64,000 bases of DNA from Geodermatophilus poikilotrophus (GTDB lineage: Bacteria; Actinomycetota; Actinomycetes; Mycobacteriales; Geodermatophilaceae), in assembly GCF_900111455.1 (NCBI RefSeq), contig NZ_FOIE01000001.1:248001-312000 (forward strand), written 5' to 3'. Within the stretch, counting starts at the first letter, position 1, and each line of letters begins with the position of its first letter. The notes under the pieces were generated by a model. The model saw only the letters and a list, made by a program, of their open reading frames with translations. It searched no databases and was not told where the DNA came from. Shown here piece after piece: positions 9,269 to 62,309 of the stretch. Both the position numbers and the translations under genes were made by a program.

Positions 9269-9282
9269 CCGTTATCCTCAAC
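9269..9282 (-). repeat. GTTGGGGATAACGG element, copy 1 (one mismatch)
   Basis: It reads GTTGAGGATAACGG on the minus strand. The match to the copy at 32054 continues downstream: GATAACGGGAGTACGG is identical in both. Confidence 0.75.
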
Positions 9283-9575
9283 TAAACGCCGCACCGGCAG
9301 CACCGGCGACGACCGGTGACGGTGGGGAAGGGGCCCGCCTCCCCGGTCCTCGACGTCGACATGGGGGCGCCACGGCCGTCGCCGGCGGCGATGCCGGGCG
9401 CACCCCGAGCGCGCCGGGGCCGACCCGATGGCGCTGCGGCGCCCGACGCTGCAGCCTCGGTGTCGCCGGCGCCCGTCCTGGCCACGGCCCCGTCGCACCG
9501 GACGCGGCGACGCGCCGCCGCGAGCGCCGACGGCCAGCACCACGGTCGGTGCGCGGCGAGTCGCTCGCCGATCAA

Positions 9576-9589
9576 CCGTTATCCCCAAC
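9576..9589 (-). repeat. GTTGGGGATAACGG element, copy 2 (exact)
   Basis: An exact copy on the minus strand, 67 nt beyond the coaA stop. With the copy at 32522 it shares a 19-nt run ending in TTGAT. Confidence 0.85.
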
Positions 9590-9655
9590 GGCCGCACGAC
9601 ACCGATAAGCGAAACGACCAAGGACCACGGCGATGGCCCCGACTCGCGCGTCGGC

Positions 9656-10618
9656 TCAGATCTTCCGCAGCAGGACCCGGCGCACCTCGTGGTCGGCGGC
9701 CTTCTGCAGCACCAACCGGGCGCGGGAGCGGGTCGGGGCGATGTTGTCGCGCAGGTTGGGGCCGTTGACGGCCGCCCAGATGCCGAGAGCCGTCTCGCGG
9801 GCCTGCTCGTCGGTCAGGCCGGCGAAGCGGTGGAAGTAGGCACTGGTGTCGGCGAACGCCGTCCGCCGCAGCGCGAGGAAGCGCTCGACGTACCACTGCC
9901 GGATGTCGGACTCCGCAGCGTCGACGTAGACCGAGAAGTCGAAGAAGTCGGACAGGAACACCTCGGGGGCGCGGCCGTCGGCCGGGCGCCCGGCCTGCAG
10001 CACGTTGAGCCCCTCCAGCACGAGGATGTCCGGCCGGTCGACCACCTGCCGGGCATCGGGGACGACGTCGTAGGACAGGTGGTCGTACAGCGGGGCGCTG
10101 ACCTCGCCGCGGCCGGACTTCACGTCGGCGAGGAAGCGCAGCAGCGCCCGCCGGTCGTAGCTCTCCGGGAAGCCCTTGCGCCCGAGCAGCCCGCGGGCCG
10201 CCAGCTCGGCGTTGGGCAGCAGGAACCCGTCGGTGGTCACCAGGTCGACCCGGGGGCTGCCCGGGCCGGCCGCCAGCAGCGTCTGCAGCAGCCGGGCGGT
10301 GGTGCTCTTGCCGACGGCGACGCTGCCGGCCACCGCGATCACGTAGGGCACCTTGGCCGTCGAGTCGCCCAGGAACTCGCTGCGGGCCGCCCACAACCGG
10401 CGGCTGGCCTCCACGTGCAGCCGCAGCAGCCCGGCCAGCGGCAGGTAGACCGTCGTCACCTCGTCGAGGTCGATCCGGTCACCGAGGCTGGCCAGCGACT
10501 CCAGCTGCGTCGCGTCCAGGGGCAGCGACGTGCCCGCCGCGAGCGCGCGCCACGAGGCGCGGTCGAAGACCGCGTAGGGCGACACCTGGGGTCGTGCCGC
10601 CGCCGTCACGCCGCCCAT
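9656..10618 (-). CDS. coaA: Type I pantothenate kinase
   Basis: A 320-residue kinase that phosphorylates pantothenate in the first step of CoA synthesis. The P-loop GSVAVGKST is present at about residues 99-107, and the family segments [28 protein letters not shown] and [12 protein letters not shown] follow. The length matches actinobacterial PanK-I. ATG 10618 has AGGAG about 6 nt upstream. The C-terminus reaches the family-typical VLRKI. It converges with gcvP across a gene-free gap. No partner CoA genes are nearby. Confidence 0.95.
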
Positions 10619-10728
10619 CCCACTCCTGTCACGGCCTCCATCGTGCCGTCCGCCCCCGGTGCCTCACCCGCCCGGGTGGCTCCCGGGCGCTCGAGCGGCC
10701 ATCGGCGGACGCCGTCGCACCCTCCGTC

Positions 10729-10734
10729 TAGGGT
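10729..10734 (+). promoter_or_regulatory. -10 box of the 10741 acetyltransferase gene (leaderless)
   Basis: TAGGGT lies 6 nt before the GTG start. Confidence 0.6.
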
Positions 10735-10740
10735 GCCGGT

Positions 10741-11547
10741 GTGTCCCTGCCCCCCGGGCTGCTCGAACGCGTCGAGCGGTACTTCGCCGCGGCACCGCTC
10801 CCGGACGCGCGCATCGAGACCGCCGGCGGTCTCGACGTGCCGGTCGGCAGCCCCATGTGGCCCTACCCGGCGCGGCCGCGACCGGGGGAGACGGTGAGCG
10901 CCGACGACGTCCGCGCGGCCGCCGCGCTGCAGCGGGCCGCGGGCCTGCCGGTGGCGCTCGAGTGGGTGTGCGAGGACGCGCCGACGGTCGAGGCGGCCGT
11001 GCGCGCCGCCGGGCTGGCCGTGGACTCCTCGCCCCTGCTGGTCGCCGCGGATCCGGTGGAGCTGCTGCTGCCCTCCGGCGTGCGGCTGTACCTGGTGGGC
11101 GCCGAGGACCCCGAGCTGCCGCGCTACGAGCGGCTGGCGTCGATCGCCTTCGCTCACCCGGGGCCGCGCTCGGAGGCGGGCGGCCCCTCGGTCGGCGCGG
11201 CCCTCGGCTCCCCGCGCACCGCGGTGCTGCGCGAGCGGATCGCGACCGGCCGCACGGTCATGATGGTCGCGGTCGAGGACGGCGAGCCGGTCGCGGTCGG
11301 CACCCACCACCCGGTGGACGTCGACGGCGCGGAGGTCTCCGAGATCGCCGGCGTGGCCACCCTGCCCCGGCTACGGGGGCGAGGGCTCGGCGCGGGGCTG
11401 GCCTCGGCGCTCACCGCGCACGCCCGGGAGACCGCCGAGCTGGTGTTCCTGGTGGCCGGGGACGACGACGTCGCGCGGGTCTACGAACGGACCGGCTTCG
11501 CCCGCCTGGCGACCGTGGGCGTGGCCGACCTCGCCGACGGGGTCTGA
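10741..11547 (+). CDS. GNAT family N-acetyltransferase
   Basis: A 268-residue protein. The C-terminal half is a GNAT domain with the acetyl-CoA loop in IAGVATLPRLRGRGLGAGLA and the later VYERTGFARL. The N-terminal half (residues 1-120) resembles the partial second domain of two-domain GNATs. The substrate is unknown. The GTG start is fixed by TAGGGT 6 nt before it, so the mRNA is probably leaderless and the gene forms its own unit. It diverges from coaA and converges on the beta-lactamase-like gene, with a 2-nt gap. Confidence 0.85.
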   Translation: MSLPPGLLERVERYFAAAPLPDARIETAGGLDVPVGSPMWPYPARPRPGETVSADDVRAAAALQRAAGLPVALEWVCEDAPTVEAAVRAAGLAVDSSPLLVAADPVELLLPSGVRLYLVGAEDPELPRYERLASIAFAHPGPRSEAGGPSVGAALGSPRTAVLRERIATGRTVMMVAVEDGEPVAVGTHHPVDVDGAEVSEIAGVATLPRLRGRGLGAGLASALTAHARETAELVFLVAGDDDVARVYERTGFARLATVGVADLADGV

Positions 11548-11549
11548 GC

Positions 11550-12455
11550 TCAGGAGCCCGTCGGCGGCGGCACCGCAGCGGCGGCCTCGTCCAGCGCCGC
11601 CCTGGCCGCGTCCCAGCCCACCGACCGGGGCACCTCGCTGAGCAGCACCACCACCCGACCGCCGGCGATCCCCACCGAGTGCAGGTGCCGCTGGCCGCTG
11701 AGGCAGCACATCCAGCCCTGCTTGACCGCGGCCCCGGGCAGCGTCCCGAACACGCCGTACTGCTGGTCGAAGCCGTCGGAGGCGACCGGGGTCGCGGTGC
11801 CCATCCAGCCCTGCAGCGCGGCGGCGTCGTCCGGGTGGGCGATGACCGGCAGGCGGGCGAGGAACCGGGCCAGGTCGGCGGCGGTCGTCGTCGTCTCGCC
11901 CCACTGCCCCCACCGGAGGGGCGGTGCGGTGCCGGTCAGGCCGTAGCGGGTGGCGACGTCGCGCACCGCCTGCGCTCCGCCGAACCGCACCCAGACGTCG
12001 GAGGCCGCGGGGTCGTTGGAGCTGCGGATCATCACCTCCAGCTGCGCGCGGTCCTCGGGGGTCAGGGCGAGGGCTCCGGTGCGCGCCCGGTGCAGGACGT
12101 CCTCGGCGAGGAAGAGCTTGACCAGCGAGGCGGTGGGGAAGGGCCGGTCGGCCAGTTCGCTGCCCGCCGTGCGGGCCTGGACCCGGGCGCTGTGGGCCTC
12201 GGCGGCGCGGATGGACCCGCCGGTCAGGCGCTCCTCCTGGCGGGCGACGACCACGGCGAACGTGCCGACGTCCCCGTGGGCCGCCATCACGGCCGGGACG
12301 ATCTCGGCGGGAGCGACGTCGTGCTCCGCCGCCGCCCGCCGCGGGGTCACGACCTCGGCGAGCAGCAGCGCGAGCAGGACGACCGCCACCAGGGCCGGCG
12401 GCACACCCCGGTGGACGCGACGGGACCAGGTCCGCTGCGCCCGAGCCGTGTCCAC
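11550..12455 (-). CDS. Exported serine hydrolase of the beta-lactamase/PBP fold
   Basis: A 301-residue protein with an Arg-rich N-terminus and a hydrophobic signal or anchor segment (about residues 20-36) ending at RRAAAEH, so it is exported. The class A-like active-site motifs are SLVK (Ser110, Lys113) and SSN (145-147). The third motif, normally KTG, reads KQG near the C-terminus, and no clear class A omega-loop Glu is seen. It could be a D,D-peptidase-like or lipoprotein-type serine hydrolase; beta-lactam resistance should not be assumed. The start is probably GTG 12455. Confidence 0.75.
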   Translation of the reverse strand: MDTARAQRTWSRRVHRGVPPALVAVVLLALLLAEVVTPRRAAAEHDVAPAEIVPAVMAAHGDVGTFAVVVARQEERLTGGSIRAAEAHSARVQARTAGSELADRPFPTASLVKLFLAEDVLHRARTGALALTPEDRAQLEVMIRSSNDPAASDVWVRFGGAQAVRDVATRYGLTGTAPPLRWGQWGETTTTAADLARFLARLPVIAHPDDAAALQGWMGTATPVASDGFDQQYGVFGTLPGAAVKQGWMCCLSGQRHLHSVGIAGGRVVVLLSEVPRSVGWDAARAALDEAAAAVPPPTGS

Positions 12456-12566
12456 ACCGTCATGGTTCCCCTACCAGATGACAGCCAGCTGAACGTTCAA
12501 GCAGCGGGGGTGTGTCGTGCGCGCACCGCGTCCGTGACGTCGCGGTGCGGTACGAGACCGGGCCGT

Positions 12567-13112
12567 TCAGTCCTGCGCGTAGGTCCCCACGAGCACCGCG
12601 CGGCCGAGGGTGTGGCCGAAGAGGTTGAAGCCGAGGAGCGCGGGGGAGGCGTCCGGGGTGACGTCGAGCCGCTCGACGTCGACGGCGTGCACCGTGACGT
12701 AGTAGCGGTGCGGTCCGTGGCCGGCCGGGGGTGCGGCACCGACGTAACCGGGGAAGCCGGCGTCGTTGCGCAGCTGGACGGCGCCCTCGGGCAGCCCGGA
12801 CCCCTGCTGGTCGCCGGCTCCAGCGGGCAGCTCGGTGACCGAGACCGGGATGTTGGCCACCGCCCAGTGCCAGAAGCCGCTGTGGGTGGGGGCGTCGGGG
12901 TCGAAGACGGTGATCGCGAAGCTCCGGGTGCCCTCGGGGAAGCCCGACCAGGACAGCTGCGGCGAACGGTCCTCGCCGCCGGCGCCCATGACCCCGCTCA
13001 CCTGCGGCGAGGACAGCGGCTCGCCGTCGCTGACGTCGGTGCTGGTCACCGCGAAGCCCGGGACCTGCGGCAGGAAGTCGTAGGGGCTGGGGGGCGTCGG
13101 GCGCTCGGCCAT
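12567..13112 (-). CDS. YbhB/YbcL family phosphatidylethanolamine-binding-like protein
   Basis: A 181-residue PEBP-fold protein (Raf kinase inhibitor-like). The family ligand-pocket motifs are visible: [20 protein letters not shown] near residues 70-90 and [12 protein letters not shown] near 130. No signal peptide is seen, so it is cytoplasmic. The bacterial function is unknown. ATG 13112 has GAGGAG about 11 nt upstream, and a TAGGGT -10 box about 55 nt upstream suggests its own promoter. The gap to the next minus-strand gene downstream holds no gene. Confidence 0.9.
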
Positions 13113-13166
13113 GGGCGCTGTTCTCCTCGAACCTCGCGGGTGGGCGGGGACGGGCGTCCCGCGCCG

Positions 13167-13172
13167 ACCCTA
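13167..13172 (-). promoter_or_regulatory. -10 box for the PEBP gene
   Basis: TAGGGT on the minus strand, 54 nt before the ATG, predicts a leader of roughly 45 nt carrying the GAGGAG ribosome site. Confidence 0.5.
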
Positions 13173-13232
13173 GAAGGACCCCGTCCTCCCCGCCCCCCGC
13201 AGGCTCAGGGCGGGGGCCCGGGACGGGGCCAC
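13173..13232. repeat. Palindromic intergenic repeat, in a divergent gap
   Basis: GC-rich imperfect inverted repeat of the family described at 57404-57458: AGGACCCCGTCCTCCCC followed by CGCAGGCTCAGGGCGGG. It lies between divergent promoters, not after a stop codon. Confidence 0.65.
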
Positions 13233-13282
13233 CCCGCGGTGAACAGCGGGTTTCCGGCCCGGCGGGGGCGCGCGGACGCCGG

Positions 13283-13288
13283 TAGCGT
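13283..13288 (+). promoter_or_regulatory. -10 box of the 13295 phosphoglucomutase gene (leaderless)
   Basis: TAGCGT lies 6 nt before the GTG start. Confidence 0.6.
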
Positions 13289-13294
13289 CGTGTC

Positions 13295-14026
13295 GTGCTC
13301 GGTCTCCCCGGCTCGATACGTGCCTGCCTGTTCGACCTGGACGGCGTCCTCACCCGGACGGCGACCGTCCACATGGCCGCCTGGAAGCGCACGTTCGACG
13401 AGTTCCTGCGCCGCAGCGACCCCGCGGCCGGGGAGTTCACCCAGCAGGACTACAACCGCTACGTCGACGGCAAGCCGCGCCTCGACGGGGTGCGCGATTT
13501 CCTGGCCAGCCGCGGCATCGTGCTGCCCGAGGGGACGCCGGACGACCCGCCGGACGCCGCCACGGTGCACGGGGTGGGCCTGCGCAAGAACCAGCTGGTG
13601 CACGCCGAGCTCGCCGAGCACGGCGTCGAGGTCTACCCCGGCTCGATCCGCTACCTGCGGGCGGCCAGGGAAGCCGGCCTGGCCACCGCGGTGGTCACCG
13701 CGTCGCGCAACGGCGCCGAGGTGATCGCGGCCGGCGGCTTCGCCGACCTGGTCGACACCCGGGTGGACGGCGAGGTCGCGGCGGCCCAGGGGCTGCGCGG
13801 CAAGCCCGCCCCGGACACCTTCCTGGCCGGCGCCCGGGCCCTGGGGGTGCAGCCGGCGGAGGCCGTCGTCTTCGAGGACGCGCTGGCCGGGGTGGCCGCC
13901 GGCCGGGCGGGCGCGTTCGGCTACGTCGTCGGCGTCGACCGGGTCGGGCAGGCCGAGGCCCTCGCGGCGTCCGGCGCGGACGTCGTCGTCCAGGACCTGG
14001 CCGAGCTGCTGGACGGCTCGAGGTGA
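13295..14026 (+). CDS. HAD-superfamily beta-phosphoglucomutase-like enzyme
   Basis: A 243-residue HAD hydrolase with the DxD nucleophile motif FDLDGVLT at the N-terminus, a helical cap domain, TASRNG (motif II), KPAPDTF (motif III Lys) and VFEDALAGVAAG (motif IV). The cap and the immediately downstream GH65 phosphorylase indicate a beta-phosphoglucomutase converting beta-glucose 1-phosphate to glucose 6-phosphate. GTG 13295 is fixed by TAGCGT 6 nt upstream, giving a leaderless mRNA. Upstream, on the other strand, lies the PEBP gene. Confidence 0.88.
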   Translation: MLGLPGSIRACLFDLDGVLTRTATVHMAAWKRTFDEFLRRSDPAAGEFTQQDYNRYVDGKPRLDGVRDFLASRGIVLPEGTPDDPPDAATVHGVGLRKNQLVHAELAEHGVEVYPGSIRYLRAAREAGLATAVVTASRNGAEVIAAGGFADLVDTRVDGEVAAAQGLRGKPAPDTFLAGARALGVQPAEAVVFEDALAGVAAGRAGAFGYVVGVDRVGQAEALAASGADVVVQDLAELLDGSR

Positions 14027-14099
14027 CCGAGCCGGCGAGGTCCCCCGTGCTCGCGGGGCGGCCCGGCGCGGGGCCGACGAGCGCCGGCGAGGGGTCACC

Positions 14100-16463
14100 G
14101 TGACCGAGGGGCGGCCACACTTCCCGATCGAGCCGTGGGCGCTGACCGAGACGGGCCTGGACCACGCGTCCCTCGCCGTCCACGAGTCGGTGTTCGCGCT
14201 GTCCAACGGGCACATCGGCATGCGGGGGTCGTTCGAGGAGGGCGAGCCGGTCGTCGTCCCGGGCACCTACCTCAACGGCTTCTTCGAGGAGCGGCCGCTG
14301 CCCTACGCCGAGGCCGGGTACGGCTTCCCGGAGCAGGGGCAGACCGTGGTCAACGTGACCGACGGCAAGCTGATCCGGCTGCTGGTCGGCGACACCCCGC
14401 TGGACCTGGACTACGGCGAGATCATCGAGCACCGGCGCACGCTGGACCTGCGCCGCGGCCTGCTGCGCCGCAGCACCGAGTGGCGCTCGCCGAACGGGCG
14501 GGTGGTGACCGTGACGAGCACCCGGATGGTCTCGCTGCGCCGCCGCTCGATCGCCGCCATCGAGTACACCGTGGAGTGCACCGACGGGCAGGGGGACCTC
14601 TACATCGCGCTGCAGTCGGACCTGCTGGCCAACGAGCCGGTGGACAGCGGCTCGGAGGCCGACGACCCGCGCGCGGCCGCGGCGCTGGCCCGCCCGCTGG
14701 TCAACGAGATGGCCGTGGCCCGCGGTCAGCGGGCGGTGCTGGTGCACCGCACCAAGCGCAGCCGGCTGCGGATGGCCGCCGGGATGGACCACGTGGTGGA
14801 GGTGCCCGACACCTCGACGGCCGACATCGAGGCCGGGGAGGACCTGGCCCGCTTCGCCCTCGCCGCCCGGCTGCCGCAGGGCTCGTCGGTCAAGCTGATC
14901 AAGTTCCTCTCCTACGGCTGGTCCTCCCGGCGGTCGGCGGCGGCGCTGCGCGACCAGGTGGAGGGGGCGCTGGCCACCGCCAAGCTCGCCGGCTTCGAGC
15001 GGCTGCTGCGCGAGCAGCGCGAGGTGCTCGACGAGCACTGGCAGCACGCCGACGTCGAGATCGAGGGGGACGACGAGCTGCAGCAGGCGGTGCGGGTCGG
15101 CGTCTTCCACCTGCTGCAGGCCGGGCTGCGGGCCGAGCGCCAGCCCATCCCGGCCAAGGGGCTGACCGGTCCCGGCTACGACGGGCACACCTTCTGGGAC
15201 ACCGAGACCTACGTGCTCCCCGTGCTCACCTACATCGCCCCGGCCGCGGCGCGCGACGCGCTGCGCTGGCGGCACTCCACCCTCGACCTGGCCCGTGACC
15301 GGGCCCGGGAGCTCGGGCTGGCGGGCGCGACCTTCCCGTGGCGCACGATCCGCGGGGAGGAGACCTCGGGCTACTGGCCGGCGGGGACGGCGGCCTTCCA
15401 CATCAACGCCGACATCGCCGACGCCGTCGTCCGGTACCACCACGCCACCGCCGACGAGGAGTTCGACCGCGACCACGGCGCCGAGCTGCTGATCGAGACC
15501 GCCCGGCTGTGGGCCTCGCTGGGGCACTTCGACGACGAGCACGGCTTCCGCATCGACGGCGTCACCGGCCCCGACGAGTACACCGCCGTCGTGGACAACA
15601 ACGTCTACACGAACCTCATGGCGCAGCGGAACATGCGCGAGGCGATCGCGGCGGTGCAGCGCCAGCCCGACGTCGCCGGCCGGCTGGGTGTCACCGAGGA
15701 CGAGACCACCCGCTGGGACCGCGCGGCCGCGCTGATGGCGGTGCCCTACGACACCCGGCGCGGCGTGCACATGCAGTCCGACGCCTTCACCCACCACGAG
15801 GAGTGGGACTTCGAGGCCACCCCGCCGGACTGCTACCCGCTCCTGCTGCACTACCCGTACTTCGACATCTACCGCAAGCAGGTGATCAAGCAGGCGGACC
15901 TCGTGATGGCGTTGCACCTGCGCGGCGACGCCTTCACCCCGGAGGAGAAGTGCGCCGACTTCGCCTACTACGAGGCGCGGACGGTGCGCGACTCCTCGCT
16001 GTCGGCCACCCAGCAGGGCGTGGTGGCTGCCGAGACCGGCCACCTGGCGCTGGCGTACGACTACTGGGGCGAGGCCACCCTGACCGACCTGCAGAACCTG
16101 CACGGCAACTCCGGGCACGGCCTGCACATCGCCTCGCTGGCCGGCGGCTGGACGGTGGCGGTCGCCGGGTTCGGCGGCATGCGCGACCACGACGGGCGGC
16201 TGCAGTTCGCCCCCCGTCTGCCGGAGCGGATCACCCGGCTGCGGTTCCGGCTGAACTACCAGGGCCGGGCGCTGGTGGTGACCGTGTCGCCGACGGAGGC
16301 CACCTACCGGCTCACCGAGGGCGAGCCGCTCGACGTGCACCACCACGGGCGCAGGCTCACCGTGACCGAGGACGAGGTGACCGCCGACATCCCGCCCGCA
16401 CCGGAGGTGGCGCCGGTGCAGCAGCCGCACGGCGTGGCCCCCCGGCGGCGCGGCCGGCGCTGA
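14100..16463 (+). CDS. Glycoside hydrolase family 65 disaccharide phosphorylase
   Basis: A 787-residue GH65 enzyme. It has the N-terminal beta-sandwich (residues 1-300), the linker and the (alpha/alpha)6 barrel. GATFPWRTIRGEE and the general-acid motif GPDEYTAVVDNNVYTN place the catalytic Glu at residue 493. The C-terminal jelly-roll ends in an Arg-rich tail. GH65 members phosphorolyse trehalose, maltose or kojibiose to beta-glucose 1-phosphate. The paired phosphoglucomutase supports a phosphorylase; trehalose or maltose is the likely substrate but the sequence does not decide. GTG 14100 has GAGGGG about 6 nt upstream. It lies 73 nt after the mutase and is probably co-transcribed. Confidence 0.9.
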   Translation: MTEGRPHFPIEPWALTETGLDHASLAVHESVFALSNGHIGMRGSFEEGEPVVVPGTYLNGFFEERPLPYAEAGYGFPEQGQTVVNVTDGKLIRLLVGDTPLDLDYGEIIEHRRTLDLRRGLLRRSTEWRSPNGRVVTVTSTRMVSLRRRSIAAIEYTVECTDGQGDLYIALQSDLLANEPVDSGSEADDPRAAAALARPLVNEMAVARGQRAVLVHRTKRSRLRMAAGMDHVVEVPDTSTADIEAGEDLARFALAARLPQGSSVKLIKFLSYGWSSRRSAAALRDQVEGALATAKLAGFERLLREQREVLDEHWQHADVEIEGDDELQQAVRVGVFHLLQAGLRAERQPIPAKGLTGPGYDGHTFWDTETYVLPVLTYIAPAAARDALRWRHSTLDLARDRARELGLAGATFPWRTIRGEETSGYWPAGTAAFHINADIADAVVRYHHATADEEFDRDHGAELLIETARLWASLGHFDDEHGFRIDGVTGPDEYTAVVDNNVYTNLMAQRNMREAIAAVQRQPDVAGRLGVTEDETTRWDRAAALMAVPYDTRRGVHMQSDAFTHHEEWDFEATPPDCYPLLLHYPYFDIYRKQVIKQADLVMALHLRGDAFTPEEKCADFAYYEARTVRDSSLSATQQGVVAAETGHLALAYDYWGEATLTDLQNLHGNSGHGLHIASLAGGWTVAVAGFGGMRDHDGRLQFAPRLPERITRLRFRLNYQGRALVVTVSPTEATYRLTEGEPLDVHHHGRRLTVTEDEVTADIPPAPEVAPVQQPHGVAPRRRGRR

Positions 16464-16466
16464 AAG

Positions 16467-16521
16467 AGGGCTCTCCTGCCCCCACCGCTCGCAAGCTCGC
16501 GGCGGGACCTGCGGGAGGGCC
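16467..16521. repeat. Palindromic intergenic repeat / probable bidirectional terminator
   Basis: It carries the family core CCCACCGCTCGCAAGCTCGC followed by GGCGGG, with outer arms pairing CTCTCCTGC with GCGGGAG. It lies between the GH65 stop and the convergent M50-like gene's stop. Confidence 0.7.
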
Positions 16522-16529
16522 GGGAGGAA

Positions 16530-17234
16530 CTAGCCGAGCAGCCACCAGCCGCCGAGGAGCAGCGCGCCCACGTCGACCAGCAGGAAGACCCCGACCCACA
16601 GCACCGCCGGCAGGCGGGTGAGGCCGGCCAGCTGGTCGGCGTCGGAGTGCGGCGCGGCCCGGCGGCGGCGGGCCCGCTGCAGCTCCAGGACCGTCTTCGG
16701 CGCGGCCAGCAGCAGGAACCACGTCCCGGCGGCCGCGAACGCCGCCTGCCCGGCCGGCGGCAGCCACCCGGTCACGGCCAGCACGACGGCGCCGGTGACC
16801 AGCACCGCCCACAGCCCGTACCAGTTGCGGATCTGCACCAGCAGCGCCGCCAGCAGGCCCAGCAGCGCCCACAGCAGCCCCACGGCGTGGCCGGCGGCCA
16901 GCAGGGCCGCTGCCCCAAGACCGAACAGCGCCGGGCCGGTGTAGCCCGCCGCGCAGGTGAGCACCATCCCGAAACCGGTGGGTCGCCCCGCCGACACGGT
17001 CAGCCCCGAGGTGTCCGAGTGCAGCCGGATGCCGGCCAGCCGACGGCCGGCGGCCAGGGCGACCAGCCCGTGCGCGCCCTCGTGGGCGATGGTCACGACG
17101 GTCCGGGCCGGCCGCCACAGGGCGGGGGAGAGGACGACGACAGCGGCCGCCAGGAGTGCGCCCACCAGGACCGTCGTCGGCAGCTGGGGGAGCGGAGTGG
17201 TCACGCGGGCCCAGAACTCCTCGACGACGTCCAC
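16530..17234 (-). CDS. M50-like integral membrane metalloprotease
   Basis: A 234-residue polytopic membrane protein. The zinc-protease motif HEGAH (HExxH) lies within IAHEGAHGLVALAAGRRLAG at about residues 70-90, inside a hydrophobic segment as in site-2 proteases. About six transmembrane segments surround it. A third zinc ligand is not obvious. Short M50B proteins of this type are common in actinobacteria and have no known substrate. The GTG start follows a gene-poor region with no clear promoter. There is no PDZ domain, so it is unlikely to be a classical Rip1-type sigma-factor protease. Confidence 0.75.
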   Translation of the reverse strand: MDVVEEFWARVTTPLPQLPTTVLVGALLAAAVVVLSPALWRPARTVVTIAHEGAHGLVALAAGRRLAGIRLHSDTSGLTVSAGRPTGFGMVLTCAAGYTGPALFGLGAAALLAAGHAVGLLWALLGLLAALLVQIRNWYGLWAVLVTGAVVLAVTGWLPPAGQAAFAAAGTWFLLLAAPKTVLELQRARRRRAAPHSDADQLAGLTRLPAVLWVGVFLLVDVGALLLGGWWLLG

Positions 17235-17580
17235 GGTGCGGAGTCAACCGCACGCAGCTGGGAACCCGGCTCGGCCGACACGGTCACGAGCGACGGAGTG
17301 CTCGCCGATGTGGATGAGGTGGCAGCGGTGTAGGTCGGTCCGGACCGCCGCGAGGACTACATCCGTTATCCCCAGCATACTCTCAAAACTACGGAACAAA
17401 CAACTGAACAGCGACACGTGGACCCGCCGCACCGGCCGGAAACTCAGACGGTGTCCGGCAACGATGTCCGGCAACGGTGTGGACGCAGCGACGGCAGCGC
17501 TGACACCGACGACGGTCAGCAGGGGAGAGACTTCCTGTCCTGGGACGGGGGAGGACTCGACGGGGGAGTCGCGGCAGACC
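17235..17580. other. Gene-free gap with one GTTGGGGATAACGG-type element
   Basis: About 345 nt with no convincing gene. An AT-richer patch (about 17377-17410) lies next to the repeat element at 17363. No clear promoter for the M50-like gene is visible. Confidence 0.6.
17363..17376 (-). repeat. GTTGGGGATAACGG element, copy 3 (one mismatch)
   Basis: It reads GCTGGGGATAACGG on the minus strand, about 130 nt upstream of the M50-like gene and downstream of the glyoxalase gene. Confidence 0.75.
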
Positions 17581-17946
17581 TCAGGCGGACGTCGTCGTCA
17601 GGTTCACGGCGTTGCCATCCGGGTCCTTCACGTGGGCGACGCGCTGGCCCCAGGGCATGTCGTTGGCAGGAGCCGGCGCCTGGCCGCCGAGCGACGCGAC
17701 CCGGGACAGGGCGGCGTCGACGTCGGGCACCTCGACGCTCAGCAGGACGCGCCCCGCCGGAGCCCCCTCGACACTGTCGTCGGCGACGATGCCCAATTCG
17801 GAGTCGCCGATCCGGAGGCCGAGGTAGAACGTCGGACCGCCGTCGGGTGTACGGCTGGCCTCCGTGGCCCCGGTGACGCCGGCGTAGAAGCGCGCCAGGC
17901 GCTCGAGGTCGTGCGTGATGATCATCGGGGTGACGGTGCTGGGCAC
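17581..17946 (-). CDS. Glyoxalase/VOC-family protein
   Basis: A 121-residue single-domain VOC protein with two beta-alpha-beta-beta-beta modules: PMIITHDLERLARFYAGVTG at the start, and HVKDPDGNAVNLTTT at the end. The latter is the family's second metal-site region. The substrate is unknown; such proteins include resistance-type dioxygenase-fold binders. The GTG at 17946 (VPSTVTPM) was chosen because GAGAGGAA lies 5 nt upstream and the VOC fold begins there. A longer frame upstream is Arg-rich and not VOC-like. Confidence 0.85.
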   Translation of the reverse strand: MPSTVTPMIITHDLERLARFYAGVTGATEASRTPDGGPTFYLGLRIGDSELGIVADDSVEGAPAGRVLLSVEVPDVDAALSRVASLGGQAPAPANDMPWGQRVAHVKDPDGNAVNLTTTSA

Positions 17947-18735
17947 GGGATTCCTCTCGGTGGGGACGTCGTTGGGTGGACCCCCCGGCACCGGCGGACT
18001 CATCGGTCGCTGCTCCGCAGTGCGCCGGGACGGTGTGGCGCCGGCTCGGCGGCGGATCGGGCGCAGCGACGTCACGTGATGGAAGAGTCGATCGACCGAC
18101 CGGCCGACGGTGCGCGCGGCCATCGCCGATCGGCGGCGCCGGTCGTGTGTCGGCAGCATGGGCGGGGCAAGCTGACGATCACCGGAGAGCTCGCCGAGGA
18201 ATCCGAACGCCAGGGTTCCGACGAGCTGCCGGTCACCGTGGAGGACGGTGCCGCAGCCGGTGCACTCCCGCGAGACCAGGCGGTCGTCGTCCTGATCGAT
18301 CGGGGAGGCCTCCTGCCTTGACTAGTTGACATAATGTGCATTATCGGCGCGGCGTCGAGGACTCGAGAGGGGCTGGTTGCGCCGCCGGATCCGGTGCTCT
18401 GGCCGGCCGCCTCGGCGTTGTCGACACCACCCATCCGGCGACGTCTCGACGGGCCGTCCAGCACGCCGGCTCGTCGACCGGCCGCCCTGCGCCCGTTGCC
18501 GGCCCGCCGTCGACGCGGGTGTCGATCGCCGGATCCCCGACGTGCTCCGGGTCTCGCGGGTCGATCGCGTCACCCTGGTGATCAGCTCCGCCGGTCGTCG
18601 CGGGTCTTGGCGCACGTCCAGTGGCGAGCCAGGAGCCGCGACCGTGGTCTCAGCGGATCGCCGGAGATGCGGCTCCGCGGCCGGCACCTACCTGGTCCCC
18701 CGCGACCGCGTCCTGCCCACCTGTCCCCGGCCATC
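17947..18735. other. Gene-poor stretch, possibly a decayed locus
   Basis: Nearly 800 nt without a supportable gene. The open frames on both strands are Arg/Pro/Ser-rich and lack ribosome sites and domains. A short plus-strand stretch ending at 18321 (SDELPVTVEDGAAAGALPRD) has more protein-like composition and may be a fossil, but I cannot assign it. An AT-rich operator-like patch lies at 18318-18344. Confidence 0.55.
18318..18344. promoter_or_regulatory. AT-rich promoter/operator-like patch
   Basis: Two overlapping -35-like hexamers (TTGACT 18318, TTGACA 18326) run into ATAATGTGCATTAT (18331-18344), a 6-bp-arm inverted repeat with a TG centre. This composition is exceptional for the window and typical of a MarR/PadR-type operator. 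No gene stands directly downstream on either strand. Confidence 0.45.
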
Positions 18736-18780
18736 CACCCATCCGTCATTACGTCACTGTGACGCAATGACGGATGGGTG
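18736..18780. repeat. Long inverted repeat, 22-nt arms, 1-nt centre
   Basis: The left arm (18736-18757, beginning CACCCATCCGTCATT) and the right arm (18759-18780, ending AATGACGGATGGGTG) are complementary at 21 of 22 positions around one T. It ends 35 nt before the -10 box of the lipoprotein gene. It could be an operator for a dimeric regulator, a hairpin terminator or a mobile-element remnant. Confidence 0.85.
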
Positions 18781-23375: not shown

Positions 23376-23389
23376 GTTGGCGACAACGG
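23376..23389 (+). repeat. GTTGGGGATAACGG element, copy 9 (two mismatches)
   Basis: It reads GTTGGCGACAACGG and lies in the convergent gap between rbpA and fxsA. The placement matches the better copies, but similarity alone would not prove membership. Confidence 0.45.
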
Positions 23390-30977: not shown

Positions 30978-31087
30978 CACCGCCGCCCCGTGCCGCCGCT
31001 CGCCGAGCCGGCAGGGCGGTTGGTGCATCGGCGCCGGAGGCGCCGTCCGGGGTTTGCTGGCGGGACCACCGAGTGAGTTGATCAATT

Positions 31088-31101
31088 GTTGGGCATAACG
31101 G
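31088..31101 (+). repeat. GTTGGGGATAACGG element, copy 4 (one mismatch), abutting a -10 box
   Basis: GTTGGGCATAACGG ends at 31101 and the TAGAGT -10 box begins at 31102. A bound protein here would cover the promoter of the next gene. Confidence 0.75.
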
Positions 31102-31107
31102 TAGAGT
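31102..31107 (+). promoter_or_regulatory. -10 box of the 31114 gene (leaderless)
   Basis: TAGAGT lies 6 nt before the ATG. Confidence 0.6.
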
Positions 31108-31113: not shown

Positions 31114-31974
31114 ATGTCGAACCGCTGGGAACCGCCGCTGCCGGCGATGCCGACTCCGCCCGCTGAGCGGGCCTGGCAGCGCCTGCCCGTACCGCCGGGC
31201 TACGAGGCCCAGTGGCGCCGCCTGGTCGACGCCGCGCTCGAGGTCGGCATGGGACCGGACTCCCTCGTCGAGGAGGGCATGGACCCCATCGCCGCGGCCC
31301 GCGGCTGGAAACCGGCCACCGTCGCGCTCTACAGCAAGGTGGCCCGCTACGGCGGCATCGCGCTGCCGGTGGTGCGCACGCCGGAGCCCGATCCGCAGAC
31401 CCTGGAGCTGCGGCCACTCTCCCAGATCAGGACCGAGGACCCCGAGCACCTGCGCACCGTGGCGTGGTGCGCGCTCGCCCTGGGCTGGCCCGGAACGGTC
31501 GGCCAGTTCCGGTCGCTGCGACGCGACCAGGTCCACCCGACGGCACGCCGGGTCGTCGTCCGCACCGACGACGGCGAGTGGTCGGTGCCCGGCGCGCTCA
31601 CCGCGTGGCACGCCTGGGAGTCCTGCCGGGCCCGGTTCCCGGCGCTCGCCGACAGCCCCTGGGTGCTGCCGGCCTTGCGCCGCGGCCCCGGCCTGGCCTC
31701 GGCGGTCGGGGCGCAGCTGTCCACCCAGGCGCTGCAGGTGACCTTCGCCAAGCACGCCGTGCGGACGGCGCAGCACCTGTGCATGACCGCGCCACCGTCA
31801 CGGCAGGACTGGGCCGAGGCGCTGTCCGTGCAGTACCTGACCCTCTCCTACGACTCCTACCGCCGCCTGGCGCTCGCCGGGGGCGCCGAGCCGGTCGCGC
31901 CGCGCGGTGCCGTGCGCGCCAAGCGCAGTGCCGCCCGTGCCGCTCGCGAGGCCGCCGGCGGGCGCCGCTCCTGA
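31114..31974 (+). CDS. Hypothetical protein resembling a degenerate tyrosine recombinase
   Basis: A 286-residue protein that I do not firmly recognise. The N-terminal 100 residues are helical. Residues 115-250 follow the order of a tyrosine-recombinase catalytic domain: ALALGWPGTVGQFRSLRRDQV (the box I position, but the expected Arg is Pro), strands in RRVVVRTDDGEWSVP, then LSTQALQVTFAKHAVRTAQHL (an HxxR-like element) and a late Tyr pair in YDSYRR. If related, it lacks the first catalytic Arg, so it would bind DNA without cutting. The tail is Arg/Ala-rich. TAGAGT fixes the ATG. Three GTTGGGGATAACGG copies flank it. Confidence 0.6.
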   Translation: MSNRWEPPLPAMPTPPAERAWQRLPVPPGYEAQWRRLVDAALEVGMGPDSLVEEGMDPIAAARGWKPATVALYSKVARYGGIALPVVRTPEPDPQTLELRPLSQIRTEDPEHLRTVAWCALALGWPGTVGQFRSLRRDQVHPTARRVVVRTDDGEWSVPGALTAWHAWESCRARFPALADSPWVLPALRRGPGLASAVGAQLSTQALQVTFAKHAVRTAQHLCMTAPPSRQDWAEALSVQYLTLSYDSYRRLALAGGAEPVAPRGAVRAKRSAARAAREAAGGRRS

Positions 31975-32053: not shown

Positions 32054-32067
32054 GTTGGGGATAACGG
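32054..32067 (+). repeat. GTTGGGGATAACGG element, copy 5 (exact)
   Basis: 80 nt downstream of the 31114 gene, on the same strand. The downstream GAGTACGG is shared with copy 1. Confidence 0.85.
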
Positions 32068-32521: not shown

Positions 32522-32535
32522 GTTGGGGATAACGG
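32522..32535 (+). repeat. GTTGGGGATAACGG element, copy 6 (exact)
   Basis: 49 nt from the 3' end of the radical SAM gene. It shares a 19-nt identity with copy 2 through TTGAT. Confidence 0.85.
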
Positions 32536-39835: not shown

Positions 39836-39849
39836 GTTGGGGATAACGG
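39836..39849 (+). repeat. GTTGGGGATAACGG element, copy 7 (exact)
   Basis: It lies between tatC and helY, opposite to both genes, 46 nt beyond the helY -10 box. Confidence 0.85.
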
Positions 39850-52765: not shown

Positions 52766-52801
52766 CGCGCACCTCCGACAGATCGGGAGAGCCAGGACGC
52801 A

Positions 52802-52809: not shown

Positions 52810-52846
52810 CACGCCCGGCGACAGCGTGCCCGGGGCTCGCGGTAGC

Positions 52847-52896: not shown

Positions 52897-52898
52897 GG

Positions 52899-52956
52899 CC
52901 TCGCTGCAGGGTCCCGCCGCGAGCGTGCGAGCGGTGGGGGGCAGCGGGGTCCTTCT
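52899..52956. repeat. Palindromic intergenic repeat, second of a tandem pair
   Basis: GCCTCGCTGCAGGGTCCCGC, then GAGCGTGCGAGCGGTGGGGG and the returning GCGGGGTCC arm. It touches the trmI stop. Confidence 0.75.
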
Positions 52957-52957
52957 A

Positions 52958-55358
<2,401 letters not shown>

Positions 55359-55398
55359 CCCGCTGGACCGGCCGCACCGGGCCGCGGGAGCATCACCC

Positions 55399-56583
55399 AT
55401 GCGCGGCTACCGGGCACCGCGGGCCTTCGACGGTGAGCGCTTCCTCGCCGGCGGGGCGCTGGTGCTGGTGGAGGGCCCCACCATCGTGGGCGTCGAGCCC
55501 GGCACCGCGCCGGCTCCGGGGGGCTGCCCGGTCACCGACCTCCCCGAGGGCACGCTGCTGCCCGGGCTGGTCGACACCCACGTCCACCTCTGCGCGGACG
55601 CCGGCCCGCGCGCGCTGGACCAGGTCCCCGAGCTGGACCCCGCCGAGCTCGACGCCGTCGTCACCGCCGCGGAGCGGGCCTCCCTGCGCGCGGGCGTCAC
55701 TGCCGTCCGCGACCTCGGCGACCACCGGTGGACCGTCCTGCAGCGCGCCCGGCGCGACGGGGAGCGGCCGACCGTCGTCGCGGCCGGGCCGCCGATCACC
55801 TCACCCGGTGGGCACTGCTGGTCGATGGGCGGCGAGACGTCGGGGGTGGACGCGCTGCGCCGCGCGGTGCGCGAGCGGGCGGAGCGGGGCGCGGGCGTCG
55901 TCAAGGTGATGGCCAGCGGCGGCGTGCTCACCCCGGGCACCGACCTCACCGCGTGCCAGTTCACGCTCCGGGAGCTGCGCGCCGTGGTCGAGGAGGCCCA
56001 CCGGCTCGGCCTGCCGGTGACCGCGCACGCGCACGGCCTGGCCGCGGTCGAGCGCGGCGTCGCGGCCGGCGTCGACGGCATCGAGCACTGCAGCTGCCTG
56101 ACCGGCTCCGGCGTCCACCTGCCCGCCGGGCTGGGCGCCGCGCTGGCCGCCGCCCGCATCGACGTCTGCCCGACGGTGGGGTTCCTGCCGGGCGTGGACC
56201 CGCCGCCGCACGTGCAGGCCCGCATGGCCGCGGTGGGCGCGACGATCGAGGACCACCTGCCGCACGTGGCGGCCCTGCACCGGGCGGGCGTGACGCTGCT
56301 CGCCGGCACCGACGCGGGGATCGGCCCGGCCAAGCTGCACGGGGGTGTGGCCCACGCGGTGGCCGACCTGGCCGGCCCCTGCGGCGTCCCGCTCGCCGAC
56401 GCGCTGACCGCGGCGACCTCCCGGGCGGCCCGTGCCTGCGGGCTCGGGGGGCGCACGGGTCGGCTGGCGGCCGGCTACGACGCCGACCTGCTCGGGGCGG
56501 AAGGCGACGTCACGACCGACGTGACCGCCCTGCAGCGGCCCCGCGTCGTCGTCGCCCGCGGCCGGGAGGTGGCGCTGGCCTAG
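55399..56583 (+). CDS. Amidohydrolase, imidazolonepropionase/prolidase-like
   Basis: A 394-residue amidohydrolase with the metal HxH in LLPGLVDTHVHLCAD, a lysine in VVKVMASGGVLTPGTD, the later His in VTAHAHGLAAVERGVAAGVDGIEHCSC, and the Asp in TLLAGTDAGIGPAKLHGG. The family cleaves cyclic amides, dipeptides or related bonds; the substrate is unknown. ATG 55399 has no strong ribosome site. Its TAG is shared with the opposite-strand stop of the HAD gene within CTAG. Confidence 0.88.
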   Translation: MRGYRAPRAFDGERFLAGGALVLVEGPTIVGVEPGTAPAPGGCPVTDLPEGTLLPGLVDTHVHLCADAGPRALDQVPELDPAELDAVVTAAERASLRAGVTAVRDLGDHRWTVLQRARRDGERPTVVAAGPPITSPGGHCWSMGGETSGVDALRRAVRERAERGAGVVKVMASGGVLTPGTDLTACQFTLRELRAVVEEAHRLGLPVTAHAHGLAAVERGVAAGVDGIEHCSCLTGSGVHLPAGLGAALAAARIDVCPTVGFLPGVDPPPHVQARMAAVGATIEDHLPHVAALHRAGVTLLAGTDAGIGPAKLHGGVAHAVADLAGPCGVPLADALTAATSRAARACGLGGRTGRLAAGYDADLLGAEGDVTTDVTALQRPRVVVARGREVALA

Positions 56584-57311
56584 GCCCCGGCGTGCACCGC
56601 GTCGCGGGCGGCCAGCACCTCGGCGAGGTCGGCCACCCGGACCCCGGCCAGGGTGTCGCGCAGGACGAGCCCCGGCAGGGCGGGCAGCGGCTGCAGGGAG
56701 GGCACGCCGAGCACCGCGGCGCCGGCGGCGAGTCCGGCCGTCGCCCCGGACACCGAGTCCTCGACCACCACGCAGCCGTCGGCGTCCACTGCCAGCGCGG
56801 CCATCGCCTGGTGGTAGGGCGCCGGGTCGGGCTTGCGGGCGGGCACCTCGTCGCCGCAGACGGTGACGTCGAAGGCCGGCAGCCCGTCGAGGTCGCGGTC
56901 GACCTTCGCGAGCACCACGTCGGCGAGCCGCCGCGGCGTGGTGGTCACCAGCGCCGTCGGCAGCGCAGCGGCGCGGGCCTCGGTGAGCAGCTCCCGGGCA
57001 CCGGGCCGCCAGGTCAGCGGGCCGGTCAGCAGCTCGGCGACGGTGTCCTCGATCCAGCGGGCGTCGGCGCGCGCCTCCGCCTCGCTGCGGGTCGCTCCGA
57101 TGTCGGCGTACAGGATGCCCAGCGCCGTGGCCATGCTCGTGCCGACGGTCCGCTCCCGCGCCTGCGCAGACATCTCCCCGCCGAGCCGGCGGGCGAGGGC
57201 GAACATCGCGGCGCCCCAGTGCTGCTCGGTCTCCACGAGCGTGCCGTCCATGTCGAACAGCAGCGCCTGCAGCCCCTCGCCGCTCGGTCCGCTGGTCCCC
57301 GGGATGCCCAT
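56580..57311 (-). CDS. HAD-superfamily phosphatase
   Basis: A 243-residue HAD hydrolase of the phosphoglycolate/beta-PGM type: LLFDMDGTLVETEQHW (DxD), TALVTTTPRRLADVV, RKPDPAPYHQAM and CVVVEDSVSGATAG. The substrate is unknown. ATG 57311 is preferred over a GTG three codons upstream because TACCGT lies exactly 7 nt before it and the GTG overlaps that box. The 3' end overlaps the amidohydrolase stop at CTAG. Confidence 0.9.
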   Translation of the reverse strand: MGIPGTSGPSGEGLQALLFDMDGTLVETEQHWGAAMFALARRLGGEMSAQARERTVGTSMATALGILYADIGATRSEAEARADARWIEDTVAELLTGPLTWRPGARELLTEARAAALPTALVTTTPRRLADVVLAKVDRDLDGLPAFDVTVCGDEVPARKPDPAPYHQAMAALAVDADGCVVVEDSVSGATAGLAAGAAVLGVPSLQPLPALPGLVLRDTLAGVRVADLAEVLAARDAVHAGA

Positions 57312-57318
57312 TGCACCC

Positions 57319-57324
57319 ACGGTA
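57319..57324 (-). promoter_or_regulatory. -10 box of the 57311 HAD gene (leaderless)
   Basis: TACCGT on the minus strand, 7 nt before the ATG at 57311. Confidence 0.55.
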
Positions 57325-57403
57325 CGGCGCGGCGGCGGGCCGGGCCGGTCCCCGGGCGGGGTCCCGACGTGACGGTCACCGCACCCGGCGACACGCTGGA
57401 ACG

Positions 57404-57458
57404 GCCTCCCTGCAGGGTCCCACCGCGAGCCTGCGAGTGGTGGGGGGAGGGAGGTCCT
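57404..57458. repeat. Palindromic intergenic repeat (best example) / probable terminator after metH
   Basis: Outer arms GGCCTCCCT and AGGGAGGTCC pair over 8-9 bp. Inner arms CCACCGC and GTGGTGG pair around the conserved GAGCCTGCGA loop. It ends 2 nt from the metH stop. Confidence 0.8.
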
Positions 57459-57459
57459 C

Positions 57460-61269
<3,810 letters not shown>

Positions 61270-61275
61270 CGAGCC

Positions 61276-61281
61276 AGGGTA
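61276..61281 (-). promoter_or_regulatory. -10 box of metH (leaderless)
   Basis: TACCCT on the minus strand, 6 nt before the GTG. Confidence 0.55.
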
Positions 61282-61370
61282 GCCGCCGCCGGGGGCCCCG
61301 GGTCGCCCGCGCGGGATACGCCGAGGCCGCCGTCCGGGCCGAACACCGCGGCGGAGGGGCCCGACCGACG

Positions 61371-61376
61371 TAGGCT
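61371..61376 (+). promoter_or_regulatory. -10 box of the 61384 PAC2 gene (leaderless)
   Basis: TAGGCT lies 7 nt before the GTG. Confidence 0.6.
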
Positions 61377-61383
61377 CGCAGGG

Positions 61384-62247
61384 GTGATCGACCCGAAGTC
61401 CACCCCTGAGGACCTGCCCCGGCTCGACGACCCGGTGGTGGTCGTCGCCTTCGAGGGCTGGAACGACGCCGGGGACGCCGCCACCGGGGCGCTGGAGCAC
61501 CTGGAGCTCATCTGGGACGCCACGCCGCTGGCCGCGCTGGACCCCGAGGACTACTACGACTTCCAGGTCAACCGGCCGACGGTCTCGCTGATCGGCGGGG
61601 TCAGCCGCCGGGTCGAGTGGCCCACCACGCGCATCTCCGTGGCCCGCCCGCCGGGCTCGGAGCGGGACGTCGTCCTGATCCGCGGGATCGAGCCCAACAT
61701 GCGCTGGCGCACCTTCTGCGAGGAGCTGATCGAGCTGTGCCAGGAGCTCGACGCGCGCACCGTGGTCGGCCTCGGCGCCCTGCTGGCCGACACGCCGCAC
61801 ACCCGCCCGACCCCGGTCTTCGGCTCGGCCTACGACGCGGAGTCGGCCGAGAAGTGGGGTCTGGACACCTCCCGCTACGAGGGGCCCACCGGCATCCTCG
61901 GGGTCTTCCAGGACGCCTGCGTGCAGGCCGGGCTGCCGGCGATCAGCTTCTGGGCCTCCGTTCCGCACTACGTCTCCCAGCCGCCGTCCCCGCGGGCCAC
62001 CGTCGCCCTGCTGCGGCGGGTGGAGGAGGTCCTCGAGCTCACGGTGCCGCTGGGCGCGCTGCCGCAGCAGGCCGACGACTGGGTGAAGACCGTCGACGAG
62101 ATGGCCAACGAGGACGCCGAGGTCGTCGAGTACGTGCGTTCGCTCGAGGAGCGCGCCACCGAGAGCGACCTGTCCGAGGCCAACGGCGACCAGATCGCCC
62201 GCGAGTTCGAGAGGTACCTGCGCCGCCGGGGCTCCTCCCCCAACTGA
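61384..62247 (+). CDS. PAC2-family protein
   Basis: A 287-residue homologue of the PAC2/proteasome-assembly-chaperone family (Rv2125 type). It has [65 protein letters not shown], then [29 protein letters not shown]. Eukaryotic relatives chaperone 20S alpha rings, but whether the bacterial proteins help the proteasome is unproven. GTG 61384 is fixed by TAGGCT 7 nt upstream. The proteasome genes are about 13 kb away. Confidence 0.9.
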
Positions 62248-62295
62248 CACCCCGCTCGGCCGTCGCTCGTGGGGCACTGGCCCGGGATGGCAGTA

Positions 62296-62309
62296 GTTGG
62301 GGATAACGG
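62296..62309 (+). repeat. GTTGGGGATAACGG element, copy 8 (exact)
   Basis: 49 nt downstream of the PAC2 stop in a convergent gap with dgt, followed by TAGTGC. The rest of the gap (62248-62492) shows nothing else. Confidence 0.85.

What the first reader, a model, noticed from the sequence alone, without database searches (positions are those of the whole stretch)
9269..62309. A conserved 14-mer, GTTGGGGATAACGG, recurs only between genes
Nine copies are visible: 9269(-), 9576(-), 17363(-), 23376(+), 31088(+), 32054(+), 32522(+), 39836(+) and 62296(+). Five are exact, three have one mismatch and one has two. All are outside genes. Six (9269, 9576, 23376, 32054, 32522, 62296) lie between convergent genes, where no promoter is needed. 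Chance expectation for an exact 14-mer here is well under one copy, and the motif is far less GC-rich than its surroundings. Some pairs extend further (19 nt between 9576 and 32522; 16 nt between 9269 and 32054). The placement resembles DNA-uptake sequences or a genome-wide protein-binding mark; that is inference.
Basis: partly seen in the sequence, partly recalled or inferred. Interest (0 to 1): 0.8.

Follow-up and report, generated by a model that had tools for sequence, protein, structure and literature searches.

The report
Candidate third bacterial replication fork trap
In one family of soil and rock bacteria, a short one-way DNA signal surrounds the point where the two copying machines meet, together with an unknown protein whose own gene switch carries the same signal; this looks like an independently evolved "replication fork trap", a device so far described in E. 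coli-like and Bacillus-like bacteria.

Summary
The window is the replication terminus of a Geodermatophilaceae chromosome: a dif site at 18324-18351 lies exactly where the motif changes strand, and dnaA is on another contig. All five exact copies in the 4.83-Mb genome are in this window. In the 24 of 25 same-genus genomes that could be scored, 201 of 202 copies (up to 1 mismatch) within 100 kb of dif point away from dif, 137 of 137 exact ones included. 70 of 70 sites examined are intergenic. An orphan protein gene (31114-31974), 12-20 kb from dif, has a motif copy in its promoter in 25 of 25 same-genus genomes. The protein is in 67 of 75 family genomes and 0 of 322 others; the 8 without it form one genus that has dif but not the sites. 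This is the anatomy of Tus/ter and RTP/ter with a protein matching neither. Best reading: a third, independently evolved polar replication fork trap. Binding and fork arrest are inferred, not shown.

The parts
9269..9282 (-). Ter-like site (1 mismatch), left arm, points away from dif
9576..9589 (-). Ter-like site (exact), left arm
17363..17376 (-). Ter-like site (1 mismatch), innermost left, about 1 kb from dif
18324..18351 (-). dif site (XerC/XerD dimer-resolution site), predicted; 26 of 28 bases as in the Frankia alni dif quoted in PMC3025954; the point where motif orientation flips
   Evidence: the 28-base comparison was made by eye
23376..23389 (+). weak match (2 mismatches), probably not a site
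31078..31107 (+). promoter of the terminator-protein candidate: TTGATC (31078-31083) and TAGAGT (31102-31107) as -35/-10-like hexamers read by eye; the motif lies in the spacer; the start codon follows 6 bases after the -10, so a leaderless mRNA is likely (inference)
   Evidence: sequence; searches show the same layout across the family
31088..31101 (+). Ter-like site (1 mismatch) inside that promoter
31114..31974 (+). gene of the candidate terminator protein (286 aa, P0001), orphan family
32054..32067 (+). Ter-like site (exact), right arm, just downstream of the gene
32522..32535 (+). Ter-like site (exact), right arm
39836..39849 (+). Ter-like site (exact), right arm
62296..62309 (+). Ter-like site (exact), right arm, about 44 kb from dif

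Best explanation
The motif, W-GTTGGGGATAACGG-TnG, is the polar binding site of a dedicated replication terminator protein, the product of window 31114-31974. Together they form a replication fork trap around dif at the chromosome terminus. Shown: the sites are non-palindromic and intergenic, lie mostly within 50 kb of dif, and point away from dif on both sides; one site lies in the promoter of the orphan gene; gene and sites occur together and are missing together. Inferred: the protein binds the site asymmetrically; forks coming from oriC meet the 3' (CGG) end and pass; forks that have crossed dif and are leaving meet the 5' (GTTG) end and are stopped; the protein limits its own synthesis by occupying its promoter.
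For: Location: dif at the flip; dnaA 46-53% of the chromosome away in 9 of 9 single-contig genomes whose length I had (coordinates, fractions by arithmetic; G208 uses a one-mismatch dif and G364 the motif flip); genes change strand bias at dif in 11 of 11 genomes, so forks converge there. Polarity: 201 of 202 copies within 100 kb of dif, 137 of 137 exact; in nine genomes of six other genera 37 of 40, the three exceptions being the inverted promoter copy (counted by hand). Locality: in four complete same-genus genomes 21 of 21 exact copies lie within 46 kb of dif. Intergenic: 70 of 70, with 26 of 69 in convergent gaps that make up 15% of gap bases. Protein: in 25 of 25 genus genomes, 12-20 kb from dif and transcribed away from it in the 24 where both are on one contig. 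Promoter site in 25 of 25 and in all 77 distinct loci of a wider, partly redundant set (it ends 12-16 bases before the start in 76 of them by my start choice). Joint absence: genus g21, 8 of 8 genomes without the protein and with dif, and no match ending in ATAACGG within one mismatch; its one sampled member nests beside protein-bearing genus g20 with 99% bootstrap.
Against: No binding, footprint or fork-arrest data exist. Several rows break polarity: a second, inverted copy about 160-195 bp upstream of the gene start in G018, G020, G142, G219, G302, G364 and in 12 of 65 named loci. Some genera have only 2-3 clear sites, and the profile scan found one further wrong-way weak match (G208, 13.4 bits). 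Joint absence in g21 could reflect another gene also missing there.
Confidence: 0.7

Rival explanations
1. Polar terminus mark for chromosome segregation rather than fork arrest: the protein-site complex unloads or blocks SMC, or positions the terminus at the division site (a MatP- or XerD-like role), with polarity relative to the moving SMC complex.
For: Concentrated at the terminus, dedicated protein, sites around dif. Unloading of MukBEF by MatP in the terminus is in the abstract of PMC8669397 (start of abstract seen); XerD unloading SMC at the terminus is a reference title seen (the paper itself is not held).
Against: Strict polarity with dif inside, and a site in the protein's own promoter, are the published marks of both known fork traps (passages of PMC6549158 and PMC10331603). 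matS is palindromic and spread over a wide macrodomain (recalled). The motif is not significantly like the dif arms (942 of 2000 shuffles score as well), which speaks against an XerD site.
Confidence: 0.15
2. FtsK-guiding sequence (KOPS-like) or a loading aid for XerCD recombination at dif.
For: Orientation flips at dif, as KOPS do (PMC13342612 passages).
Against: KOPS are abundant 8-mers read by FtsK. Here there are about 10 copies of a 14-17-mer near dif, missing from a genus that keeps dif, and one site sits in a local gene's promoter.
Confidence: 0.05
3. Operator of an ordinary transcription regulator encoded at 31114-31974.
For: One copy always overlies that gene's promoter; some copies lie upstream of other genes.
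Against: 26 of 69 sites lie between convergent genes, and sites sit at varying distances from genes; motif strand follows the side of dif in convergent, divergent and tandem gaps alike.
Confidence: 0.06
4. DnaA-box-like titration sites (the reverse complement holds TTATCCCCA, close to the DnaA box TTATCCACA, recalled).
For: Sequence resemblance only; the copy at C7:238521 contains TTATCCACA on its other strand.
Against: DnaA is present in the one g21 genome tested for it (G101), which has none of the sites; the conserved part includes flanking CCG and AAC; the sites are at the terminus, far from dnaA.
Confidence: 0.02

Closest known systems
Tus/ter replication fork trap (most Enterobacterales, Aeromonadales, Pseudoalteromonas)
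   Same: Non-palindromic sites in two opposed groups, dif between the innermost ones, terminator gene in the terminus, a site in its promoter (PMC6549158, PMC10331603 and PMC13220808 passages).
   Different: No sequence match to the Tus family: Pfam scan of the protein at E up to 10 gives nothing. Different 14-17-base site; phylum Actinomycetota; sites mostly within 50 kb of dif instead of over about 43% of the chromosome (PMC13220808 passage).
RTP/ter replication fork trap (Bacillus)
   Same: Same layout and the same promoter-site autoregulation (PMC10331603 passage); [quoted passage not shown]
   Different: RTP binds as two dimers to a two-part site; here one asymmetric 14-17-mer without obvious repeat halves and a 286-aa protein that matches no Pfam family.
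MatP/matS and XerD-SMC unloading
   Same: Terminus-restricted sites of a dedicated protein.
   Different: Strictly polar and clustered around dif.
KOPS/FtsK
   Same: Polarity flips at dif.
   Different: Few, long, local sites tied to one gene.

Membership tests
Replication fork trap (functional class) | several non-palindromic sites in two oppositely oriented groups about the terminus | tested here: met
   201 of 202 within 100 kb of dif consistent, 24 genomes
Replication fork trap (functional class) | dif between the innermost opposed sites | tested here: met
   all 24 genus genomes with dif and sites on one contig have minus copies left and plus copies right of dif; one exception row, the inverted promoter copy of G018 (rows)
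Replication fork trap (functional class) | terminator gene in the terminus with a site in its own promoter | tested here: met
   (anatomy only; regulation not tested)
Replication fork trap (functional class) | protein binds the site; forks leaving the terminus are arrested, entering forks pass | not testable with these tools
   needs bench work
Tus family (PF05472) | sequence homology of the protein | tested here: not met
   no Pfam family at E up to 10; with two profiles the only PDB chains listed were a ribosomal protein L1 (E 1.1) and COP9 signalosome subunit 1 (E 0.8)
RTP family (PF02334) | sequence homology of the protein | tested here: not met
Tyrosine recombinases (PF00589), as a possible ancestor | profile similarity | tested here: not met
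   no Pfam hit; hhalign against 30 recombinases scores no better than column shuffles, 16 of 60 reach it
KOPS | abundant short motif over whole replichores | tested here: not met
   5 exact copies in 4.83 Mb, all in the terminus window
matS/MatP | palindromic, non-polar site | tested here: not met
   asymmetric logo and strict polarity; that matS is palindromic is recalled
DNA uptake sequence | many copies dispersed genome-wide (recalled) | tested here: not met

The most novel reading that the evidence does not exclude
A third replication fork trap, unrelated by sequence to Tus/ter and RTP/ter, that arose independently in the actinobacterial family Geodermatophilaceae, with a new family of terminator proteins, and was lost as a unit (protein and sites) in one genus.
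Probability: 0.65. Interest if true: 0.9.

Novelty: new variant of a known kind. Interest (0 to 1): 0.86.

Why it matters
[quoted passage not shown] a 2026 review of E. coli and B. [quoted passage not shown] passages read). Why cells keep a fork trap is an open question. A third independent origin, with a natural absence in one genus, lets the selective reason be tested by comparison. It would also supply a new polar DNA roadblock protein and a simple search recipe (a polar motif flipping at dif plus a gene with the motif in its promoter) for further unseen traps.

Tried and rejected
(1) oriC or DnaA boxes: the reverse complement resembles a DnaA box, but dnaA is on contig C15 and the terminus region is antipodal to it in complete relatives. 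(2) Distal recurrent copy GTTCGGGATAACGG (own C7:855565): I picked 17 such far copies by hand from the rows; all 17 have the same sequence surroundings and long open frames across the motif, and I read a conserved peptide (RYPEL) on the other strand by eye, so it is probably protein-constrained. Nine of the 17 are on the dif contig (380-620 kb away) and are still in the 219-copy count, but not in the counts within 100 kb. (3) Tyrosine-recombinase ancestry of the protein, which I suspected by eye: hhalign not significant. (4) Origin of the motif from a dif arm: not significant. (5) GC skew as a terminus marker: too weak and inconsistent here; gene strand bias and the dnaA antipode served instead. 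(6) More degenerate sites: a profile scan of 11 termini found few matches between clear sites and noise. (7) Other polar 11-mers in outgroup and g21 termini: none stands out; among A/T-richer 11-mers the motif is at or near the top where sites are numerous, but not in the top six listed for G208, G364 and G302, which have few sites. (8) Homologues on phages and plasmids: none by tblastn at E up to 1.
Full report
OBSERVATION. Five exact copies exist in the 4.83-Mb genome and all five are in this window. Allowing one mismatch gives 11 copies, all on contig C7, ten of them between C7:238521 and C7:310309. The window is C7:248001-312000. Eleven further rows have two mismatches, against 7 matches of the reversed control pattern at up to two mismatches, so two-mismatch rows are mostly chance. 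The 23376 copy is one of them: it scores 14.5 bits where sites with up to 1 mismatch score 22 or more, and it is absent from the same gap of G024.

WHERE THE WINDOW LIES. A scan of one genome per species for relatives of a window protein returned 65 loci, nearly all titled Geodermatophilus, Blastococcus, Modestobacter, Trujillonella, Goekera or Geodermatophilaceae; one is titled Frankiales (a MAG, L123) and one 'UNVERIFIED_ORG: Bacillus sp.' (L129). The scan used two short peptide patterns, so it reaches close relatives only. The host is therefore a member of the Geodermatophilaceae (inference from these titles; the genome itself is unnamed). The window holds chromosomal genes (for example RbpA, TatC, glycine dehydrogenase) and no tRNA or Rfam match. 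dnaA is on C15. At 18324-18351 lies a predicted dif site: CGCGCCGATAATGCACATTATGTCAACT on the minus strand against CACGCCGATAATGCACATTATGTCAAGT quoted for Frankia alni in PMC3025954 (passages; that paper says no dif of Actinobacteria was experimentally confirmed then). The core pattern GATAATNNNNATTATGT occurs once in each of 25 of 25 same-genus genomes. In nine single-contig genomes dif (in G364 the motif flip, in G208 a one-mismatch dif) lies 46-53% of the chromosome from dnaA (coordinates; fractions are my arithmetic). Within 60 kb, genes left of dif are mostly on the plus strand and genes right of it mostly on the minus strand in 11 of 11 genomes, as expected if forks converge at dif. Plain GC skew was too weak to use.

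POLARITY. Left of dif the copies are on the minus strand, right of it on the plus strand. The rows list 242 copies (up to 1 mismatch) in 25 same-genus genomes, ours included: 23 lie on other contigs (drafts) and 219 on the dif contig, 218 of these pointing away from dif. Seventeen of the 219 lie beyond 100 kb, nine of them a distal coding match (below), so the fairer count is within 100 kb of dif: 201 of 202, with 137 of 137 exact copies, in 24 genomes; G020 drops out because its dif contig holds no site. Median distance to dif of the 202 is 15.8 kb and 90% lie within 45 kb. In four complete genus genomes 21 of 21 exact copies are within 46 kb of dif. In nine genomes of six other genera that have both dif and sites, 37 of 40 copies within 100 kb point away from dif (my count by hand from the rows). 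The exception in the genus (G018:C17:209182) and the three outside it (in G302, G142, G219) are one thing: a second, inverted copy about 160-195 bp upstream of the start of the candidate protein's gene. The same copy occurs 162-192 bp upstream in 12 of 65 named loci, where all 12 opposite-strand copies are at that place and the other 104 follow the gene's direction. It also occurs in G020 and, with two mismatches, in G364.

SITE. Seventy sites (up to 1 mismatch) from the termini of ten genomes give the logo W-GTTGGGGATAACGG-TnG; the eleventh genome fetched, G101 of genus g21, has none. None of the 70 lies in a called gene, with 85-91% coding in the ten genomes. Of 69 classifiable sites 26 are in convergent gaps, 22 in divergent and 21 in tandem ones, although convergent gaps hold 15% of gap bases (p about 2e-6 if sites were independent, which they are not fully since relatives share gaps). 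Of 172 ordered pairs of orthologous intact gaps in protein-bearing genomes, 84 hold a site in the second genome: sites come and go while the polar cluster stays. A recurrent GTTCGGGATAACGG copy 380-620 kb from dif (distance known in nine genomes) has the same coding surroundings in 17 of 17 loci fetched and is not counted as a site.

PROTEIN. Window 31114-31974 encodes a 286-aa protein. It has no match in Pfam, PHROGs or NCBIfam at E up to 10, no meaningful PDB match with either of two profiles, and none in phages or plasmids. Homologues, 69-95% identical, are single-copy in the other 24 same-genus genomes and absent from 16 of 16 other genomes of the order. In a draw of 397 genomes of the order it is in 67, all in this family; 8 further family genomes, all of genus g21, lack it, as do the remaining 322 (non-matching genomes are listed nearest first and the list is cut, so 75 family members is as far as it shows). 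It lies 12.3-20.5 kb from dif and is transcribed away from dif in 24 of 24 genomes with both on one contig. Its promoter carries the motif in 25 of 25 genus genomes (22 within one mismatch, three with two) and in 77 of 77 distinct loci of a wider set that overlaps the first and contains duplicates (78 rows, locus L169 counted twice, once with a wrongly chosen start and no motif). The motif lies just before a -10-like TAnnnT, with the start codon 6-7 bases further on. That layout suggests a leaderless mRNA and autorepression (inference).

JOINT ABSENCE. Genus g21 has dif in 8 of 8 genomes but, within one mismatch, no copy ending in ATAACGG: three genomes have one GTTGGGGATGACGG match each and five have nothing. 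The 13 protein-bearing genomes of seven other genera searched with them have 2-10 copies each, a few of them isolated and probably chance. In g21 genome G101 the gene's usual neighbours (acyltransferase and radical SAM genes) are next to each other with about 50 bases between them (coordinates). A tree of 22 terminus-region proteins (8945 columns) puts G101 beside two g20 genomes that have the system (99% ultrafast bootstrap); the outgroup joins on the branch to G364, which also has it (86%; one of three outgroups, G039, is mostly gaps). Loss in g21 is the simplest reading, with one g21 genome sampled and a root that is only moderately supported.

MECHANISM. Both known fork traps consist of non-palindromic ter sites around dif and a protein bound in an oriented way, so that forks leaving but not entering the terminus are blocked (PMC6549158 passages). 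In both, a ter site lies in the promoter of the terminator gene, and dif lies inside the innermost ter sites in E. coli and other trap-bearing species examined (PMC10331603 passages). Every anatomical item is met here. I therefore infer a fork trap: forks from oriC meet the CGG end and pass, forks leaving meet the GTTG end and stop. The enrichment between convergent genes fits a complex that must not be swept off by transcription (inference). Binding and arrest are not shown.

KNOWN OR NEW. The protein belongs to neither Tus nor RTP by sequence. The motif string is in 0 papers of the library. Searches for fork traps with Actinobacteria (20 of 86 papers listed), Geodermatophilus with replication terminus (1 paper), fork trap with Tus, RTP and convergent evolution (15 of 20), polar terminus signals in Actinobacteria (15 of 51), recent fork-trap papers (16 of 16) and the family's genera with replication terms (15 of 45) showed no such system in titles and abstract starts; I did not open the rest. 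A 2026 review discusses only Tus/ter and RTP/ter (PMC13220808 passages). Subscription papers and preprints are not held, so prior description elsewhere cannot be excluded.

RIVALS. A polar SMC-unloading or terminus-anchoring role is the strongest rival; KOPS, a plain operator and DnaA boxes fit worse (see the list).

Noticed in passing
L117, L119, L120, L122, L123, L125, L128, L129, L132, L136, L142, L153, 162-192 bp upstream of the gene start: A second motif copy, inverted relative to the promoter copy, in part of the family; the place where polarity is broken. Perhaps a two-site autoregulation or a two-way block at the gene.
   Followed up: partly
window 18738-18778: Near-perfect 41-base inverted repeat CCCATCCGTCATT...AATGACGGATGGG about 0.4 kb from dif, upstream of a short ORF; looks like an operator or hairpin (seen by eye).
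   Followed up: no
own C7:855565 (outside the window) and 16 relatives (L322-L337): Motif-like GTTCGGGATAACGG conserved inside what looks like a coding sequence far from dif; a trap for naive motif counts.
   Followed up: yes
G101 (genus g21), about C1:4339564-4339614: Clean absence of the terminator-candidate gene between its usual neighbours, acyltransferase and radical SAM genes.
   Followed up: partly
own C7:459175-459693 and similar matches in relatives: A tyrosine-recombinase-like gene in an open frame of about 350-370 aa seen in several genomes; possibly a resident chromosomal recombinase other than XerC/XerD.
   Followed up: no
window 9269/9576 and 32054/32522: Two gaps on opposite sides of dif each carry a pair of copies, and the 3' flanks match crosswise (GGGAGTACGG and GGTTGAT); could be old duplication or shared flanking preference.
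   Followed up: no
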